Below are positions 38,188-44,619 of a stretch of 44,819 bases of DNA, piece after piece. The notes beneath the pieces are model-generated. The model searched no databases. It had not been told where the DNA came from and saw only the letters and a list, made by a program, of their open reading frames with translations. Position numbers and translations under genes: made by a program. Source of the DNA: Actinomyces sp. (GTDB taxonomy: Bacteria > Actinomycetota > Actinomycetes > Actinomycetales > Actinomycetaceae); the NCBI RefSeq assembly GCF_030524025.1, contig NZ_JAUNHI010000020.1, positions 1 to 44,819 on the forward strand, written 5' to 3'. Within the stretch, counting starts at the first letter, position 1; every line of letters starts with the position of its first letter.

Positions 38188-38261
<74 letters not shown>

Positions 38262-38265
38262 CGAA

Positions 38266-38315: not shown

Positions 38316-38362
38316 AATCTCATCTTGAAACTCATCTTGAGATTCAGAGCCGCGAGCGGCTC
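38316..38362. repeat. direct and inverted repeats beside tRNA-Pro
   Basis: CTCATCTTGA occurs twice, at 38319-38328 and 38331-38340, 12 bases apart. AATCTCA (38316-38322) and TGAGATT (38338-38344) frame them as an inverted pair. A hairpin GAGCCGC-GA-GCGGCTC follows (38347-38362). These may be arm-type sites for the missing integrase; this is inference. Confidence 0.45.
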
Positions 38363-38453
38363 CGGGAGACCTCCTGGAGGTCGTCCTGCATGTGAGCGCC
38401 GTGCCCGAGAATCGGCTGCCCAGGGCGACCTCCACCTACTCGGGAGGTTTCCA

Positions 38454-38999
38454 ATGTCCTGTTCATGCTCAACTGTTGCCGTCGTTCGTCCCCGTGTCTG
38501 GGTGGGCTGCCTCGGGTGCTACAACGCCGGTCGCCTCGTGGGGAGGTGGGTCGATGCCGAGAGTGCCGCCAGCCTCACGTCTGAGGAAGTCCACGGCTAC
38601 CCCAGTGCTCACGACGAACTGTGGTGCCTGGATACCGAGGGCTTCCCTTACGGGACCGGGGAAGTCTCCCCGTCCGTCGCCTCGAAGTGGGGTGAACTCT
38701 ATGGCGAGGTGGGGGAGACCCTCTGGCCTGCGCTGGTGTCGTGGGTCGAGAGCGGCTGCTACGTCGTTGATGCTGATGAGTTGCCGTGCGTGTCCGACTT
38801 CGAGGAGCGGTTTTGCGGCTGCTGGGAGTCGGAGACTGACTACGCCAACCAACTCGCCGAGGAGATGGGCGTGTGGGATGAGGTGCCCGAGCACCTGCAC
38901 TCGTACGTGGACGTGCAGAAGTGGTGGCGGGACGAGCGGCTCGACTACAGCATCACCGAAGCGCCCAACGGCGCCGTGTACATCTTCCGGTGCTGCTGA
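38454..38999 (+). CDS. ardA: ArdA-family antirestriction protein
   Basis: ArdA proteins mimic the shape and charge of B-form DNA and block type I restriction enzymes, which helps an incoming element to survive. The 181-residue protein is strongly acidic. It shows the family start PRVWVGCLGCYNAGRLVGRWVDA, then DELWCLDTEGFPYGTGE, an acidic central part, FEERFCGCWESETDYANQLAEE, VPEHLHSYVDVQKWWRDER and an ending strand. The Cys-containing CLGCYN in place of the common LAAYN and a Cys-rich tail (CSCS, CC) are variations. ATG 38454 has GGGAGG 6-7 bases upstream; an in-frame extension to 38325 covers the repeat region and is unlikely. It is the first gene of the element. Confidence 0.85.
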   Translation: MSCSCSTVAVVRPRVWVGCLGCYNAGRLVGRWVDAESAASLTSEEVHGYPSAHDELWCLDTEGFPYGTGEVSPSVASKWGELYGEVGETLWPALVSWVESGCYVVDADELPCVSDFEERFCGCWESETDYANQLAEEMGVWDEVPEHLHSYVDVQKWWRDERLDYSITEAPNGAVYIFRCC

Positions 39000-40427: not shown

Positions 40428-41882
40428 TCACATCTCGTAGCCGTCGTTCTTGGGCTGCTCGGCGGCGGCTGCACTCAAGGCCTTCTCAGCGTCCTGGACG
40501 CGGCGGTCGAGGCGCTGCTGGGCGCTCTCGCTGCGCTGCTGGACGCGCGAGCGGGTCTCCTGCCGGATCATGGAGACGCCCTTCGCGTAGTCGGCGAACC
40601 CCTCGGAGTCGGCAAAGGTGACGTAGGCACTCTTCGCCGACTCGATCATGCGCTGGACGGCGGGGTCGGCGGCCTTCTTCGAGATGCTCTCGGCAAGAGC
40701 GCGAACACCATCAGCAAAGAACGCCCGAGCCTGCTCACCCGAAAGCGGCTTGGAGGTCTTGACCGAGGCGAGATGCTGCGCGGCCTCGCTCGCCAGGGCA
40801 CTGGCCCGGGTGAGTTCCTCGCGTGCGGTCTCAAGCTCGCTCTTGGCCTCGGCGCGCCCCTCGGCGAGGCCCGCCTTCCTACCCTCGTCGCGTGCGGCCT
40901 TGCGCTCCTGCTCGACCTCCTTGCGGGCTAGGCGAACCTCGGCGAAGCCCTCATCGAGTCGCTTGTGTTCCTCGGCGAGCGCCTCCTCAGCAAGCTGCTC
41001 GAACTCCCCTCGAACCTGCTCGACGCGTTCCTCAAACTCGCGTCGCTCGTCCTTCAACGCGCCGTAGGTCGCCTTGGTCTCGGTCTTGTCGTGTCGAAGG
41101 GGATCGACTTCGCGCTCGACCTCCCATCCGTGTTCGACCATCCAGTCCTTGAGGTCGGCGTGGTACTTGCGGAACTTCGTCTGCCCGCTCATCTGCCTGC
41201 CGTGCTCGTCGCGGACGGCACGGTGCGAGCCGTAGGCGCGGGAGAAGTCGCAGCGCAGGCTGCCCTCATGACCGGGCCGCGTGTCAGGCGCGAACGTGTC
41301 CGCGAGGACCTGGATGTGCGGCGTGGTCTCGGAGAACTGGATGTCCGCTCCGAGTACCGCATCCCAGCCCCCAGGGATCACCTGCGAGGCCATGAACTCC
41401 ATCGCGTCCTCGAAGTACCGCAGCGCCTCGTCACGGTCTCGCGCGACCCATCGCGAGCGGCGTCCCACCTCCTTACCCTCCTTGTTCAGGACGGGGTAAA
41501 AGCCCGGCACCTCACGGCACATGCTCTTGGGCAGGTGGAGAACGAACATCGAGGTCGTCCACGTTCCGCCCTTGGTCTTCTTCGTCACCGGATCGACCTT
41601 GCCCTCACGCACCGGCGAGGACAGCCTCGCGAGGCGCTGCGCGCCGTACGCGAGGACCTGCTTCGGGTCCGTGCAGGGGACCAGATCACCATCCCCGCCG
41701 TTCACGAGGGCGATGTCCAGGTGCTCGTCCTCGATGACGATGCTCGGGTTGCGCTTGGCCCATCTGGCGATGGACTCCTCGCTCAACTCTCGCATCATCT
41801 CGTCAATGATCGCGCCGCGTTCCCCGACGCTCTTCGTATGCGTCACGTGGAATCCCGTGCGGCCAACTTCGTTGCCCATCAT
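40428..41882 (-). CDS. relaxase-like mobilisation protein with a long coiled coil
   Basis: The protein (484 residues from ATG 41882) resembles plasmid Mob proteins. Residues about 1-265 form the nicking-type domain: GFHVTHTKSVGERG at the start and SETTPHIQVLADTFAP near 183-198, in place and context of the metal-binding histidines of the HUH fold. Here the motif is His-Ile-Gln rather than His-x-His. Then RCDFSRAYGSHRAVRDEHGRQM follows. Residues about 265-375 are a long charged coiled coil (EFEERVEQVRGEFEQLAEEALAEEH is representative in part). GAGGAG lies 3 bases before ATG 41882 and 6 bases before the next ATG (41879), so either may be used. Role: nicking at oriT for mobilisation by a helper conjugative system. 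Confidence is lower for the exact family. Confidence 0.7.
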   Translation of the reverse strand: MMGNEVGRTGFHVTHTKSVGERGAIIDEMMRELSEESIARWAKRNPSIVIEDEHLDIALVNGGDGDLVPCTDPKQVLAYGAQRLARLSSPVREGKVDPVTKKTKGGTWTTSMFVLHLPKSMCREVPGFYPVLNKEGKEVGRRSRWVARDRDEALRYFEDAMEFMASQVIPGGWDAVLGADIQFSETTPHIQVLADTFAPDTRPGHEGSLRCDFSRAYGSHRAVRDEHGRQMSGQTKFRKYHADLKDWMVEHGWEVEREVDPLRHDKTETKATYGALKDERREFEERVEQVRGEFEQLAEEALAEEHKRLDEGFAEVRLARKEVEQERKAARDEGRKAGLAEGRAEAKSELETAREELTRASALASEAAQHLASVKTSKPLSGEQARAFFADGVRALAESISKKAADPAVQRMIESAKSAYVTFADSEGFADYAKGVSMIRQETRSRVQQRSESAQQRLDRRVQDAEKALSAAAAEQPKNDGYEM

Positions 41883-41989
41883 TCTCTCCTCACTCACTCA
41901 CTTCGTTCGTTCACTCGTCGGCGCCCCGTGTCCGCGAGTGGGGCCCCTGCTCACTGCGTTCGCTGCCCCTTGTCGCGCCCCCGTGGCAT

Positions 41990-42208
41990 CACCGGAACGT
42001 TCCTTTAGGACCCTCGCTCCGCTACCCAAAGGAACCCTCCGGTGACAAAGCCACATGTCTTGCCGGGACCCTCGCTCCGCTACCCGTCAACACATGTGTC
42101 TTTAACCCCGTAAAGACACCTACGCTTCGCTCCGGTGTCACGGGGCTGCTCCGCAGGGGCGGGGACAGAGGTCGAACCTGCGCTCGCTCGGTTCTTCCCC
42201 CTGTCCCC
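41990..42208. repeat. array of stem-loops with shared loop sequence (oriT or replication-origin candidate)
   Basis: The 333-base gap between the relaxase gene and the next gene is filled with hairpins. A: CACCGGA/TCCGGTG plus GTTCCTTT/AAAGGAAC (41990-42044), loop ACCCTCGCTCCGCTA. B: CACATGT/ACATGTG plus CGGG/CCCG (42052-42098), the same 15-base loop. C: GTGTCTTTA/TAAAGACAC (42096-42119). D: GACACC/GGTGTC (42115-42139), loop with CGCTTCGCTCC, sharing bases with C. E: CTGC-TCC-GCAG (42146-42156). F: GGGGACAG/CTGTCCCC with inner GAACC/GGTTC (42161-42208), loop TGCGCTCGCTC. Stems differ fully while loops keep CGCTnCGCT. Confidence 0.8.
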
Positions 42209-42215
42209 AAGGCCG

Positions 42216-42560
42216 TCACCACTGCGCCGTTGGCACATCGGTGTCGGCCTGCTCGTCGCCTCCGTCAGAGCCCCACCGAGGCTCTTCCTCCGGCTCCTCG
42301 GGTGCGCTGTTCTCGGTGCTGTTCGCACCGAGAACACGACGCACTTGGTCGGCGATTGAGGGGTCATCAAGGTTCTCGATGACTGCTCTCATCGCCTCTG
42401 GGCTTTCCGCAAAAACCACACGGGAGAGTGCCTCTCCCAGGGCAGTTTTTGCGGAAAGGAGTTCCTCTGCGCGGGCACGCTTGAGGTGATTGCGCAGGGT
42501 GCGTGCGCGGGCGTTCGCCTGCTCCAGTTCCCTCTCGATCTCGGCTGCGGTCTTGGTCAT
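42216..42560 (-). CDS. small coiled-coil protein of unknown function
   Basis: The 114-residue protein starts MTKTAAEIERELEQANARART, a charged coiled coil, continues with LGEALSRVVFAESPEAMRAVIENLDD, and ends in an acidic tail (NSAPEEPEEEPRWG). AAAGGA lies 8 bases before ATG 42560. A longer in-frame start (42773) overlaps the rep 3' end and is not protein-like. It lies between rep and the relaxase gene on the same strand, so a copy-number or accessory mobilisation role is possible. A long perfect hairpin lies inside the gene. Confidence 0.65.
   Translation of the reverse strand: MTKTAAEIERELEQANARARTLRNHLKRARAEELLSAKTALGEALSRVVFAESPEAMRAVIENLDDPSIADQVRRVLGANSTENSAPEEPEEEPRWGSDGGDEQADTDVPTAQW
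42403..42458. repeat. long nested perfect hairpin inside a coding sequence
   Basis: CTTTCCGCAAAAAC (42403-42416) and GTTTTTGCGGAAAG (42445-42458) are perfect 14-base inverted arms. Within the 28-base centre, GGGAGAG and CTCTCCC (42422-42428, 42432-42438) pair around TGC. Two perfect stems in 56 bases of protein-coding DNA are far beyond chance. Candidates are a Rep or relaxase nick site, a single-strand origin, or a terminator/attenuator. Confidence 0.85.
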
Positions 42561-42628: not shown

Positions 42629-44155
42629 TCAGATGGTCCAGAGGGAGGGCTCGGTGTAAGGCTCTTGAACCTGCATCTCGGCTGCCCTTGCTGCGAGTGC
42701 CCGCCGTTCCTCGGCCTCTCTCTCGGCCTGCCGATCCCGCTCCGACTGGACGAGCTGTTGCGTCGTAGTCCAATCGTCCGAACCCGATAGCACGATGTCT
42801 GGTGAGGCTGCGTCGAGTTGCTCCAAGAGGGAACCGATCGCACCGGCTGACGAGTGCTCGACTGCGCTGAGTTCGCCAAACTTCATCGGGATGTACCGTT
42901 GGCCGTAGTGCTGTTTGCCGTCGATAGTGACCGTTGTCGGAAACGAGACCGTTCGCTCCTCCTCCAGACGGCCCACAGGTGCGACCGTAAACGTGCGCTC
43001 CCCATCGACACGCTGGACATTGACGGTCGCGGCGAGACGCCTGATGAACTGGTCGAGTGCCTCGTCCACGTTGCCCTTGTTGCGGGTGTAGTAGAAGTAC
43101 TGGTCGGGCGGGATGGTTGCTGTCAGGACGATCAGCCGGGGTGCGACCTCCTGCTTGTTCGAGTAGCGGGCACGAGCCGGGGAGGCGTTGTACGGGTCAA
43201 GCAGCAGCAGCCAGTCGTTCGCCTCCATCGCGGACCCGCGCAGGTCGTCTAGGAAGATGACCTCTTCTCCGTGCCAGTCGTCGAGCGGGTTCGCCGTCGC
43301 GGCCCGGTAGACGCGCCACGTCTCGCCGCGTTCCTTGGCGAGACCCAGAGCGCGGGCCATGAACTCCCGAGCGAAGTAGGTCTTTCCCGCCCCTGACTCT
43401 CCCCAGATGAACACGACCGTCGTGTGAAAGTCGCCTTGGCGCAGTTTCGCGGCGGCCTGGTAGGCGCGACGCTGACCGTAGGCACCGAAGGCCTCGTCCA
43501 TCATCGTCTTGTGCCGGGAGTAGATCGTGAAGAGGTCATCGGTCAGCATGACCTGCTCCTTCGAGACGAGGCCCTCCAGGATCAGGTCGCGCAGATAATC
43601 CGCCGACTCGTTCGCGTTCTTGGTCTTGATCGTCGCCGCACCGCGAGCCCAGACCTCCCGCCTCTCGGCGTGGATGTCCATGTAGTTCTTCCCCCGAAGA
43701 GTGGCGACCTCCTCCGCCGGGTACTGGTACTTGTCCCGGTACTTGGCGTGGACGAGGTAGGCGAGCATGTTGTCGAACGCGTAGCGTCCGGCTTTCGGCT
43801 TCTCGACGTACTGCGGCTCCACGCCGAGGAACCCGGCGAGCTGCTCCACGGACGCGGAGGACTTGCGGTCGGCAAACCGGAAGACGGCGTGGACGTGCCT
43901 CTCTTTCGGAACGCGGTCGTACTGGTGCGTGACCTCGTTCCACTGGTCCTGCTCGTCCTTGTCGTGGATGATCGCGTACGCGGCCTCGACCTTGCAGCCG
44001 ACGGCTTCCAGTCGCTCCACCAGGTAGGTCCCCAGACTGAGCGCGTCGCAGTCCAGTGCGGTCGCGTTGTGGGGGTCATCGGCCCAGGTCCACAGGTCCG
44101 ACTTCAACTGCTGCGTGAGGCCGATCAAGGTCGGGTTGTTCGACTGCTTGCTCAT
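42629..44155 (-). CDS. replication protein: HUH endonuclease fused to superfamily 3 helicase
   Basis: The 508-residue Rep has both halves of a rolling-circle initiator of the CRESS type. N-terminal nickase: IIHDKD (62-67, motif 1), ERHVHAVFRF with the metal-binding H-V-H (87-89, motif 2), and YLVHAKYRDKYQY (133-145, motif 3) with the nucleophilic Tyr and Lys; this resembles Rep_2-type plasmid Reps. C-terminal helicase: Walker A GESGAGKT (252-259), Walker B EVIFLDD (298-304), motif C LIVLTAT (341-347). A charged tail ends it. GGGAGGTGA stands before ATG 44155, which overlaps the previous stop (ATGA). It would start replication at a hairpin origin. All catalytic residues are present. Confidence 0.88.
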   Translation of the reverse strand: MSKQSNNPTLIGLTQQLKSDLWTWADDPHNATALDCDALSLGTYLVERLEAVGCKVEAAYAIIHDKDEQDQWNEVTHQYDRVPKERHVHAVFRFADRKSSASVEQLAGFLGVEPQYVEKPKAGRYAFDNMLAYLVHAKYRDKYQYPAEEVATLRGKNYMDIHAERREVWARGAATIKTKNANESADYLRDLILEGLVSKEQVMLTDDLFTIYSRHKTMMDEAFGAYGQRRAYQAAAKLRQGDFHTTVVFIWGESGAGKTYFAREFMARALGLAKERGETWRVYRAATANPLDDWHGEEVIFLDDLRGSAMEANDWLLLLDPYNASPARARYSNKQEVAPRLIVLTATIPPDQYFYYTRNKGNVDEALDQFIRRLAATVNVQRVDGERTFTVAPVGRLEEERTVSFPTTVTIDGKQHYGQRYIPMKFGELSAVEHSSAGAIGSLLEQLDAASPDIVLSGSDDWTTTQQLVQSERDRQAEREAEERRALAARAAEMQVQEPYTEPSLWTI

Positions 44156-44619
44156 CGCCGGTCACCTCCCGACTGATTCGCAGTGTGGTGACGAGGACCG
44201 AGGCAGGGGTGCGCCTGGCGACCTCTGTCGAGGCACCGGAGCCTGACCGGTGCCTCGACGAAGGCCGCCGCACCGGGCGCAAGACGGCCTCCGAGGGGGT
44301 CACGTAAGTTAATTGACCCCCAATTGACCCCTAATTGACGACCTAATTGACCCCCTGAAAACAGGCGGAAGCGCGTCTCGTTCGAGGTGGTGTCGAGGAT
44401 GAGTTTTGCCTGGTGTTCCAGCCGATTGTTGGGGTGCGCGGCAGTCGACAAGCCCATGCCGCGCGCGCGTAGGGAGCAATTAGACCCGTTTTGGCCAGAA
44501 AACTCTTGAGGAGGCTCCAAGGGCAGGTTTTCACACGAGGGCGTGCCCGCGTCGCGGGCAAGCCTCGGGGCCTTCGGCCCCTCGCTCGCGGGGGAGAAGG
44601 TGGTGATGGTGGGGTTCAT
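44152..44619 (-). CDS. reading frame coupled to both neighbours and containing the iterons
   Basis: A 155-codon frame starts in an ATGA overlap with the stop of the upstream helix-turn-helix gene and ends in an ATGA overlap with the rep start. Both couplings together suggest it is translated. The product is not recognised: low-complexity, with iteron-encoded repeats (GGQLGRQLGVNWGSIN) and a tail rich in Arg/Ala. The first 50 codons hold two hairpins (GCCCGCG/CGCGGGC and GGGGCC/GGCCCC with loop TTC). It may be a leader whose translation feeds ribosomes into rep, or chance. Confidence is low as a functional protein. Confidence 0.4.
   Translation of the reverse strand: MNPTITTFSPASEGPKAPRLARDAGTPSCENLPLEPPQEFSGQNGSNCSLRARGMGLSTAAHPNNRLEHQAKLILDTTSNETRFRLFSGGQLGRQLGVNWGSINLRDPLGGRLAPGAAAFVEAPVRLRCLDRGRQAHPCLGPRHHTANQSGGDRR
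44295..44355. repeat. iteron array upstream of rep
   Basis: AATTGACCCC-type units start at 44311, 44322, 44333 and 44345, so they are 11, 11 and 12 bases apart, one helical turn each, on the same face of the DNA. The third reads AATTGACGACC. GGGGGTCA (44295-44302) is an inverted half unit that pairs with TGACCCCC (44314-44321). Iterons are usually Rep-binding sites that set initiation and copy number. They lie about 140-200 bases before rep, inside another reading frame. Confidence 0.8.

What the first reader, a model, noticed from the sequence alone, without database searches (positions are those of the whole stretch)
41990..42208. Array of stem-loops with changing stems but a constant loop (CGCTnCGCT)
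Two neighbouring hairpins share the identical 15-base loop ACCCTCGCTCCGCTA while their stems have no sequence in common but stay perfectly paired; further hairpins carry CGCTTCGCTCC or TGCGCTCGCTC loops. Free stem sequence with fixed loop is the mark of selection on structure plus a loop-binding protein or RNA. Hairpins C and D share bases, so they are mutually exclusive. Position beside the relaxase gene fits oriT, a single-strand origin, or a structured leader of the relaxase message. I know of no named family with this pattern.
Basis: seen in the sequence. Interest (0 to 1): 0.75.

Follow-up and report, generated by a model that had tools for sequence, protein, structure and literature searches.

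The report
Mobile element's DNA-transfer origin hairpin array
The hairpin cluster is most likely the place where a small mobile element's DNA is cut and sent to another cell, and its unchanging 'loops' look like tiny, unusually stable single-stranded DNA caps that recur at transfer origins of the same type in very different bacteria.

Summary
The array is real and conserved, with compensatory stem changes, upstream of related relaxases in seven other actinobacterial loci; a structure model then found it beside two more relaxases. On the relaxase-coding (minus) strand CGCTnCGCT reads AGCGNAGCG, containing GC-GNA-GC, the sequence of a known, extraordinarily stable DNA mini-hairpin. The core hairpin (42106-42145) matches the pMV158 (MOBV) transfer origin in layout, not sequence: 12-bp stem, 3-nt right-arm bulge, inner hairpin 9 nt before a candidate nick GGGG/TTA, and an alternative hairpin sharing an arm. 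A GNA or GNNA mini-hairpin abuts this module in the window and in 14 of 24 MOBV plasmids examined (13 Firmicute, one Citrobacter); the passages I read do not mention it. The element is an 8.2-kb tRNA-Pro island with integrase, Rep and a divergent MobV-like relaxase. Best explanation: oriT of a MOBV-like relaxase, built as single-stranded DNA structure and extended by extra GNA-capped hairpins. Inferred, not shown: nick position, ssDNA folding, role of the extra hairpins. Against: nick consensus and relaxase motifs differ from MOBV1, the alternative hairpin is weak in three of eight loci, and a sister relaxase branch lacks the array.

The parts
42106..42145 (-). H2 = IR1/IR3-like core oriT hairpin: 12-bp stem, 3-nt right-arm bulge TTT, internal loop GGA..GTA, cap GC-GAA-GC
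42105..42106 (-). candidate nick, 5'-ACGGGG/TTAAAG-3' (predicted by analogy, not shown)
   Evidence: position equals pMV158 TGTG/TTATAC in the same layout
42146..42156 (-). H0: CTGC-GGA-GCAG mini-hairpin abutting the outer stem of H2
42096..42119 (-). IR2-like alternative hairpin GTGTCTTTA / TAAAGACAC enclosing the candidate nick, excludes H2
42047..42103 (-). H3: hairpin with GNA cap (GGGTA-GC-GGA-GC-GAGGGTCC)
41989..42045 (-). H4: hairpin with GNA cap; shares a 20-nt apex with H3, different stem
41940..41969 (-). H5: GGGGC-A-GC-GA-AC-GCA-GT-GA-GC-AGG-GGCCCC (my reading of the cap)
   Evidence: the energy model folds it otherwise
42161..42208 (-). H1: hairpin with GAGCGAGCGCA apex (not a GNA triloop)
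40428..41882 (-). divergent MobV-like relaxase (484 aa)
   Evidence: hhalign to a MobV alignment probability 97.9, E 4.5e-13; below the NCBIfam cut-off, no Mob_Pre match in Pfam
42216..42560 (-). small gene of unknown function upstream of the array; similar ORF at the same place in L013 (by eye)
42629..44155 (-). Rep (Rep_OBD + RNA_helicase)
38227..38262 (+). 3' end of tRNA-Pro = left att; second exact 36-nt copy at contig position 46436, outside the window, beside a Phage_integrase gene at 45030-46304

Best explanation
The array is the origin of transfer (oriT) of an integrative mobilizable element. On the relaxase-coding strand, which would be the transferred strand, hairpin H2 plays the part of IR1/IR3 of MOBV origins: the relaxase recognises it, shifts it, and nicks just 3' of its right arm (GGGG/TTA). 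The alternative hairpin around the nick is the IR2-like form. H0, H2, H3, H4 and H5 carry C-GNA-G mini-hairpin caps, a motif that folds very stably in single-stranded DNA, so the apex is fixed by DNA chemistry while stems may drift as long as they pair. H3-H5 lie 3' of the nick and would enter the recipient first; H1, H0 and H2 last, where H2 would serve strand closure. Shown: conservation, compensation, strand asymmetry, layout match, association with MobV-like relaxases rather than with one Rep type. Inferred: nick position, ssDNA folding in vivo, the order of transfer, the role of the extra hairpins (compaction and nuclease protection of the strand, docking of relaxosome proteins).
For: Compensatory stems: 132 of 132 cells paired, 35 with both sides changed, 0 of 500 shuffles (8 loci, hand-padded alignment). 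Model R1 found two unseen loci (G085, G028), each directly 5' of a relaxase missed by the protein search; that of G085 is Pfam Mob_Pre, 66 bits. R2 hit only own and G028 in 396 order genomes and only own in 366 phylum genomes (E up to 0.02). H2 layout equals pMV158 IR3/IR1+8/IR2 (PMC5863519). A descriptor without fixed stem sequence matches 22 of 32 MOBV-upstream regions on the coding strand (one of these, L044, spuriously), 0 of 32 on the other strand and 7 of 1280 shuffles, and lands on the pMV158-type nick GTGTG/TTATAC. With the loop class left free, triloops abutting the best module are GNA in 14 of 16 cases. GNA hairpins of at least 2 bp: coding 42, non-coding 10 over seven loci. Rep differs among array-bearing loci (Rep_OBD; D5_N/DUF5906 in Schaalia; helicase only in G085).
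Against: Nick consensus GTGTG/TT is not met (CGGGG/TT; G/C instead of G/T in three of eight loci). IR2-like pairing is at least 8 bp in five of eight loci only. The window relaxase carries none of the MOBV1 motifs HxxR, NY(D/E)L, HxDExxPHUH. Six same-family relaxase homologues and Brachybacterium lack the array. With stems of at least 3 bp, GNA hairpins exceed shuffles clearly in only two of seven loci. The energy model does not close the GNA cap in own H3, H4 and H5. The descriptor was written after looking at several of its targets, and its best hit in the window is not this site but one near rep (16.8 against 16.0).
Confidence: 0.82

Rival explanations
1. Single-strand origin (sso/ssi): the hairpins of the displaced or transferred strand recruit RNA polymerase or primase to start the complementary strand. 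It could be the job of H3-H5 next to an oriT at H2.
For: Structure is stronger on the strand that would be single-stranded; extra hairpins lie beyond the minimal oriT. Some apices in relatives read TAGCGA, which resembles the ssoA CS-6 motif as I recall it.
Against: H2 has the oriT layout and abuts a nick-like site. In IMESag-rpsI the putative ssoA lies downstream of mob, not upstream (PMC5090054). Own H3 and H4 read TAGCGG.
Confidence: 0.12
2. Structured RNA leader or attenuator of the relaxase message, with the shared arm as a switch.
For: The coding strand is the structured one and would be transcribed; G.T pairs 24 versus A.C mismatches 1 in 38 folded hairpins, though G.T is also the milder mismatch in DNA.
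Against: 1x1 mismatches are 26 of 31 purine-purine, and G.T makes 24 of 564 pairs, few for an RNA in my experience of such families (recalled). Coding-strand caps with at least 2 bp: GNA 42, GNNA 9 of which GNRA 4, TNCG 1. No Rfam family besides tRNA at gathering score. The same module occurs in plasmids with the pMV158-type oriT.
Confidence: 0.05
3. Double-strand replication origin (dso) for Rep.
For: Rep is a nicking-type protein (Rep_OBD) encoded on the same strand.
Against: The array stays with the relaxase while Rep type changes. AATTGACC repeats (44311, 44322, 44345) and a second descriptor hit lie upstream of rep.
Confidence: 0.03
4. Ordinary terminators or chance palindromes of GC-rich DNA.
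For: GC-rich hairpins are common; the 9-mer is not enriched in the whole window.
Against: Folding z -8.2, compensatory changes, conserved order, model specificity.
Confidence: 0.01

Closest known systems
oriT of pMV158 and other MOBV1 elements (PMC5863519; IMESag-rpsI, PMC5090054; passages)
   Same: Upstream of and on the coding strand of the relaxase; IR3 of 12 bp with a 3-nt right-arm bulge; IR1 8 nt (own 9) before the nick; IR2 sharing an arm; mutually exclusive hairpins; direct repeat of the left arm.
   Different: No shared sequence that I could see beyond G/TTA; GC-rich; IR1 cap is GGA-GC-GAA-GC-GTA, not GAAT; three further GNA-capped hairpins (H3-H5); divergent relaxase.
pBBR1-type MOBV2 oriT (PMC3632715, passages) and small enterobacterial MobV plasmids (L048, L059, L060)
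   Same: PMC3632715 describes 8-bp inverted repeats with a 3-bp spacer; in L048 the repeat is 8 bp around GAA, in L059 and L060 5 bp around GTA and GAA. AGCGNAGCG elements also occur in these three upstream regions.
   Different: L059 and L060 do not match the full descriptor; other hosts.
Streptomyces telomere 3' overhangs (PMC7205883, PMC4513846; passages)
   Same: Tightly packed palindromes with variable stems and constant GCA/GGA/GNA loops closed by a sheared G-A pair, on single-stranded DNA.
   Different: Internal, beside a relaxase, not at a replicon end; Tap/Tpg not looked for.
d(GCGNAGC) mini-hairpin (PMC4686876, passages, and papers it cites)
   Same: Exact cap sequence with free N; the GNNA variant also occurs (GC-GTTA-GC in H2 of the Actinomycetaceae MAG and Schaalia).
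   Different: Known as a chemical object; no role at oriT in the passages I read.

Membership tests
MOBV-type oriT | lies upstream of the relaxase gene, structure on its coding strand | tested here: met
MOBV-type oriT | IR3: 12-bp stem with a 3-nt bulge in the right arm, nick at its 3' end | tested here: met
   own 12 bp and 3 nt; 2-4 nt right-arm bulge in 7 of 8 loci, 3/3 internal loop in G085; the nick itself not tested
MOBV-type oriT | IR1 about 8 nt upstream of the nick | tested here: met
   8-9 nt to the candidate nick in 8 of 8 loci, counted by hand on the sequences
MOBV-type oriT | IR2 encloses the nick and shares an arm with IR1 | tested here: inconclusive
   own 9 bp; at least 8 bp in 5 of 8; 3-5 bp in Acul, Bsan, Mhel; permutation 104 of 40320
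MOBV-type oriT | nick sequence consensus GTGTG/TT | tested here: not met
   CGGGG/TT; so called MOBV-like by layout, not filed as a MOBV1 oriT
MOBV-type oriT | is cleaved by its relaxase | not testable with these tools
   needs a nicking assay
MOBV relaxase | profile match | tested here: inconclusive
   hhalign 97.9% to a MobV alignment; NCBIfam MobV 15.8 bits against a cut-off of 100; Pfam Mob_Pre not found
MOBV relaxase | motifs HxxR, NY(D/E)L, HxDExxPHUH (as given in PMC5090054) | tested here: not met
   none of the three in the window protein; it reads QFSETTPHIQ at motif III; relative L005 reads QYSENTPHMH
Streptomyces-type telomere | located at the end of a linear replicon | tested here: not met
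   internal to an integrated element with att repeats on both sides
Streptomyces-type telomere | hairpins with GNA loops and variable stems | tested here: met
ssoA lagging-strand origin | RS-B and CS-6 motifs (recalled) | tested here: inconclusive
   TAGCGA in some relatives' apices, TAGCGG in own, by eye; RS-B not searched
Rfam RNA families | gathering-score match | tested here: not met
   only tRNAs

The most novel reading that the evidence does not exclude
A C-GNA-G single-stranded-DNA mini-hairpin directly 5' of IR3 is an unrecognised conserved part of MOBV transfer origins across Firmicutes, Proteobacteria and Actinobacteria, and in GC-rich elements it has been multiplied into a telomere-like array that guards, compacts or primes the transferred strand: a DNA structure code read from shape, with the stems free to diverge.
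Probability: 0.4. Interest if true: 0.78.

Novelty: new variant of a known kind. Interest (0 to 1): 0.62.

Why it matters
It suggests a way to find transfer origins of MOBV-type elements by layout when their sequence has diverged; the mobility of many small plasmids and integrated elements is unresolved for want of a recognisable oriT. It links two fields, conjugation origins and Streptomyces telomeres, through one DNA cap, and makes testable whether constant loops in such arrays are protein sites or self-folding single-stranded DNA.

Tried and rejected
Plasmid blastn with the array and tblastn with four of the actinobacterial relaxases (window, L005, L020, L016): no match. Viral contigs: no relaxase relatives; pattern CTTWACGGGGTTAAWGAC gave four loci, all without the array by reading. 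Rfam at permissive E-value over 41850-42300 gave only four matches far below gathering score. RNA leader, dso and chance were considered and set aside for the reasons given. A G.T versus A.C test for RNA against DNA did not decide. A whole-region no-GU fold gave messy caps and was replaced by hairpin-by-hairpin folds. MAFFT alignments A3 and A4 of the core were partly misaligned and replaced by hand-padded A5/A6.

Descriptor caveats: the L044 hit is not the oriT module. Over longer DNA it is not specific by itself: 5 hits in the window, the best near rep; 6 in L014, whose two best are elsewhere. In one search, 13 of the 28 best modules are, by my reading, not the oriT hairpin (two of the 16 abutting triloops are second readings of a site that also reads GNA); in the other 15 the abutting hairpin is GNA in 14 and GNNA in one.

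In the 22-row, 18-distinct table all 216 cells pair by construction, because rows were chosen for pairing (Mhel, which the descriptor had missed, added by hand; L044 left out); only the spread of pair types (81 compensatory cells, shuffle mean 22.6) is informative.

Full report
OBSERVATION. The hairpins exist at the stated place and beyond it. Two share a 20-nt identical stretch (42008-42027, 42066-42085). As single-stranded DNA the minus strand of 41985-42215 folds at -66.1 kcal/mol (z -8.2), the plus strand at -53.9 (z -5.5); none of 200 shuffles of either folds as well. The 9-mer CGCTNCGCT is not enriched in the window as a whole, but three of its five copies lie in 117 bases.

CONTEXT. The array lies between a small gene (42216-42560) and a 484-aa relaxase-like gene (40428-41882), all on the minus strand, with a Rep (Rep_OBD plus helicase) upstream. 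An exact 36-nt direct repeat of the tRNA-Pro 3' end at 38227 and at contig position 46436 frames about 8.2 kb; a Phage_integrase gene (33.9 bits, cut-off 27.1) lies at 45030-46304, just beyond the window. A run of N follows the window end.

RELATIVES. Relaxase search: 10 of 213 family genomes including own, 1 of 394 class genomes (own), 2 of 396 order genomes (own and one more), and 8 named genome loci. The array is upstream in own and in 7 of the 8 named loci (Pseudoglutamicibacter cumminsii, Actinomyces culturomici, Brevibacterium sandarakinum, Actinomycetaceae MAG, Schaalia vaccimaxillae, Microbacterium helvum, Leucobacter MAG); three of these are also three of the family hits. It is absent in Brachybacterium, where a sequence that I read as a transposase gene lies directly upstream (the extra order genome reads the same), and in the six other family genomes, whose relaxases align only from about residue 104 and have a different, hairpin-dense upstream region.

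COVARIATION. Stems H0, H2-outer, H2-inner and the cap over eight loci: 132 of 132 cells paired, 10 of 17 pairs changed on both sides, 35 compensatory cells against 10.3 in shuffles; sliding the partner by one base drops pairing to 37-39%. With G085 added, 99.3% of 148 cells. The alignment is hand-padded for this structure, so the percentage leans towards it; the compensatory count is the sturdier figure. AMAG and Schaalia are close to each other.

STRUCTURE-ONLY SEARCH. Model R1 found 6 of 213 family genomes: own, three that trained it, and two new ones, G085 and G028, at E about 1e-4. In both the array sits directly 5' of a relaxase that the protein search had missed; that of G085 belongs to Pfam Mob_Pre (66 bits). 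The two elements are nearly identical, so they count as one independent finding. R2 hit own and G028 among 396 order genomes, and only own among 366 phylum genomes (E up to 0.02). Rep types differ among array-bearing elements (Rep_OBD; D5_N/DUF5906 in Schaalia; helicase only in G085; no family for the Leucobacter gene). Thus the array goes with the relaxase.

WHAT THE LOOP IS. On the coding strand CGCTnCGCT is AGCGNAGCG, which contains GC-GNA-GC. GNA or GNNA mini-hairpins with at least two G-C pairs, such as d(GCGAAGC), are extraordinarily stable and nuclease-resistant (PMC4686876, passages). All four N occur. In AMAG and Schaalia the H2 cap is GC-GTTA-GC, a GNNA. GNA triloops with at least 2 bp: coding 42, non-coding 10 over seven loci, each locus above its shuffles (0-46 of 1000 as high). 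With at least 3 bp only Bsan (4 of 1000) and Mhel (20 of 1000) stand out; the other five do not (101-443 of 1000). Of 38 hairpins that I delimited by eye in seven loci, 30 carry a central GNA and 1 a GNNA; the exceptions are five H1 and two long H3. In 1x1 mismatches 26 of 31 are purine-purine, pointing to the coding strand. The internal loop GGA/GGA or GGA/GTA around the cap resembles (GNA)2 motifs of DNA that I recall from Chou and colleagues. The energy model closes the cap in all seven H2 and in six of seven H0 (AMAG H0 does not fold on its own), but not in own H3, H4 and H5.

THE oriT MATCH. Passages of PMC5863519 describe pMV158: IR3 with a 12-bp stem, 4-nt loop and 3-nt bulge in the right arm, nick at its 3' end; IR1 ending 8 nt before the nick; IR2 enclosing the nick and overlapping IR1's right arm; a direct repeat; the coding strand is transferred; MobM shifts IR3 to IR1, while an IR2 hairpin was not detected on supercoiled DNA. 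Own H2 is CCCCGT-GACACC-[13 nt]-GGTGTC-TTT-ACGGGG/TTAAAGACAC: 12 bp, a 3-nt right-arm bulge, inner hairpin 9 nt before the candidate nick, alternative 9-bp hairpin, GACAC repeated. Right-arm bulges of 2-4 nt occur in 7 of 8 loci; G085 has a 3/3 internal loop. Alternative pairing is 8-10 bp in own, AMAG, Pcum, Leuc and G085, but 3-5 bp in Acul, Bsan and Mhel; permuting the downstream arms reaches the observed sum in 104 of 40320 cases.

OTHER MOBV PLASMIDS. I fetched 25 MobV plasmid stretches; 24 had an upstream region (L038 starts at the gene). Many pMV158-type regions read CTC-GCA-GAG directly followed by the outer stem. A descriptor (GNA/GNNA hairpin, abutting outer stem, inner hairpin, 2-4 nt right bulge) hits 22 of 32 regions (7 of 8 actinobacterial, 15 of 24 plasmids), 0 of 32 complementary strands and 7 of 1280 shuffles. 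It was written after seeing several of these, many plasmids are related, and the L044 hit is spurious, leaving 14 plasmids. With the loop class left free, 28 of 32 regions give a best module; abutting triloops are GNA in 14 of 16, abutting tetraloops GNNA in 2 of 4; 13 of the 28 modules are other hairpins. GNA hairpins of at least 3 bp in the 24 regions: coding 40, non-coding 6 (summed); most single Firmicute regions are not above their shuffles. IR1 caps by eye: GNA 9, GNNA 3, GAAT/GGAT 3, other 7, IR1 not found 2, of 24. L059, L060 and the Citrobacter plasmid L048 also carry AGCGNAGCG elements; of the three only L048 fits the full descriptor. Over the whole window the descriptor gives five hits, of which this site (16.0) is second to one near rep (16.8).

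THE RELAXASE. The window protein aligns to a MobV alignment at 97.9% probability, including the HUH region, but it falls short of the NCBIfam MobV cut-off and Pfam Mob_Pre does not appear. The MOBV1 motifs listed in PMC5090054 (passages) are not met. I therefore call it MobV-like, a divergent branch, and the site MOBV-like by layout.

LITERATURE. Passages, not whole texts, of PMC5863519, PMC4686876, PMC7205883, PMC4513846, PMC5714925, PMC5704250, PMC3632715 and PMC5090054 were seen; other papers only as search listings. Searches with oriT and sheared, mini-hairpin, GNA-loop or triloop terms listed no paper that I could see describing GNA hairpins at oriT; PMC5863519 holds neither 'mini-hairpin' nor 'sheared'. 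Subscription papers are largely missing from the library, so novelty is provisional. A MobV IME of the actinobacterium Trueperella pyogenes (ATE-1) is known (PMC5704250), and 3-bp spacers in MOBV2 oriTs are noted in the passage seen without comment on GNA (PMC3632715).

VERDICT. An oriT of MOBV-like design is the best-supported reading (0.82). What may be new is the recurrent GNA single-stranded-DNA cap and its multiplication into an array; that reading is plausible but unproven (0.4).

Noticed in passing
window 44580 downward, minus strand; L014 from 7135: A second, higher-scoring descriptor hit (16.8) between the HTH gene and rep: GGGCC-GAA-GGCCC followed by outer stem CGAGG and an inner hairpin; could be the rep dso or a terminator.
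   Followed up: no
window 42403-42458: Perfect 14-bp inverted repeat CTTTCCGCAAAAAC/GTTTTTGCGGAAAG inside the small gene, with an inner hairpin; similar repeats by eye in L005, L006 and L013.
   Followed up: partly
L007-L012, about 1 kb upstream of the relaxase: A sister relaxase branch has a different hairpin-dense region; in L007 GNA/GNNA hairpins of at least 3 bp number 10 on the coding and 1 on the non-coding strand; its relaxases align only from about residue 104.
   Followed up: partly
window 44311-44352: Three AATTGACC repeats upstream of rep, perhaps iterons.
   Followed up: no
L034 and L035: Nearly identical elements in two genera; in L034 the DNA just downstream of the relaxase is close to stretches with ArsR-family regulator genes on actinobacterial plasmids.
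   Followed up: no
window 38325-38999: ArdA antirestriction gene in the element.
   Followed up: no
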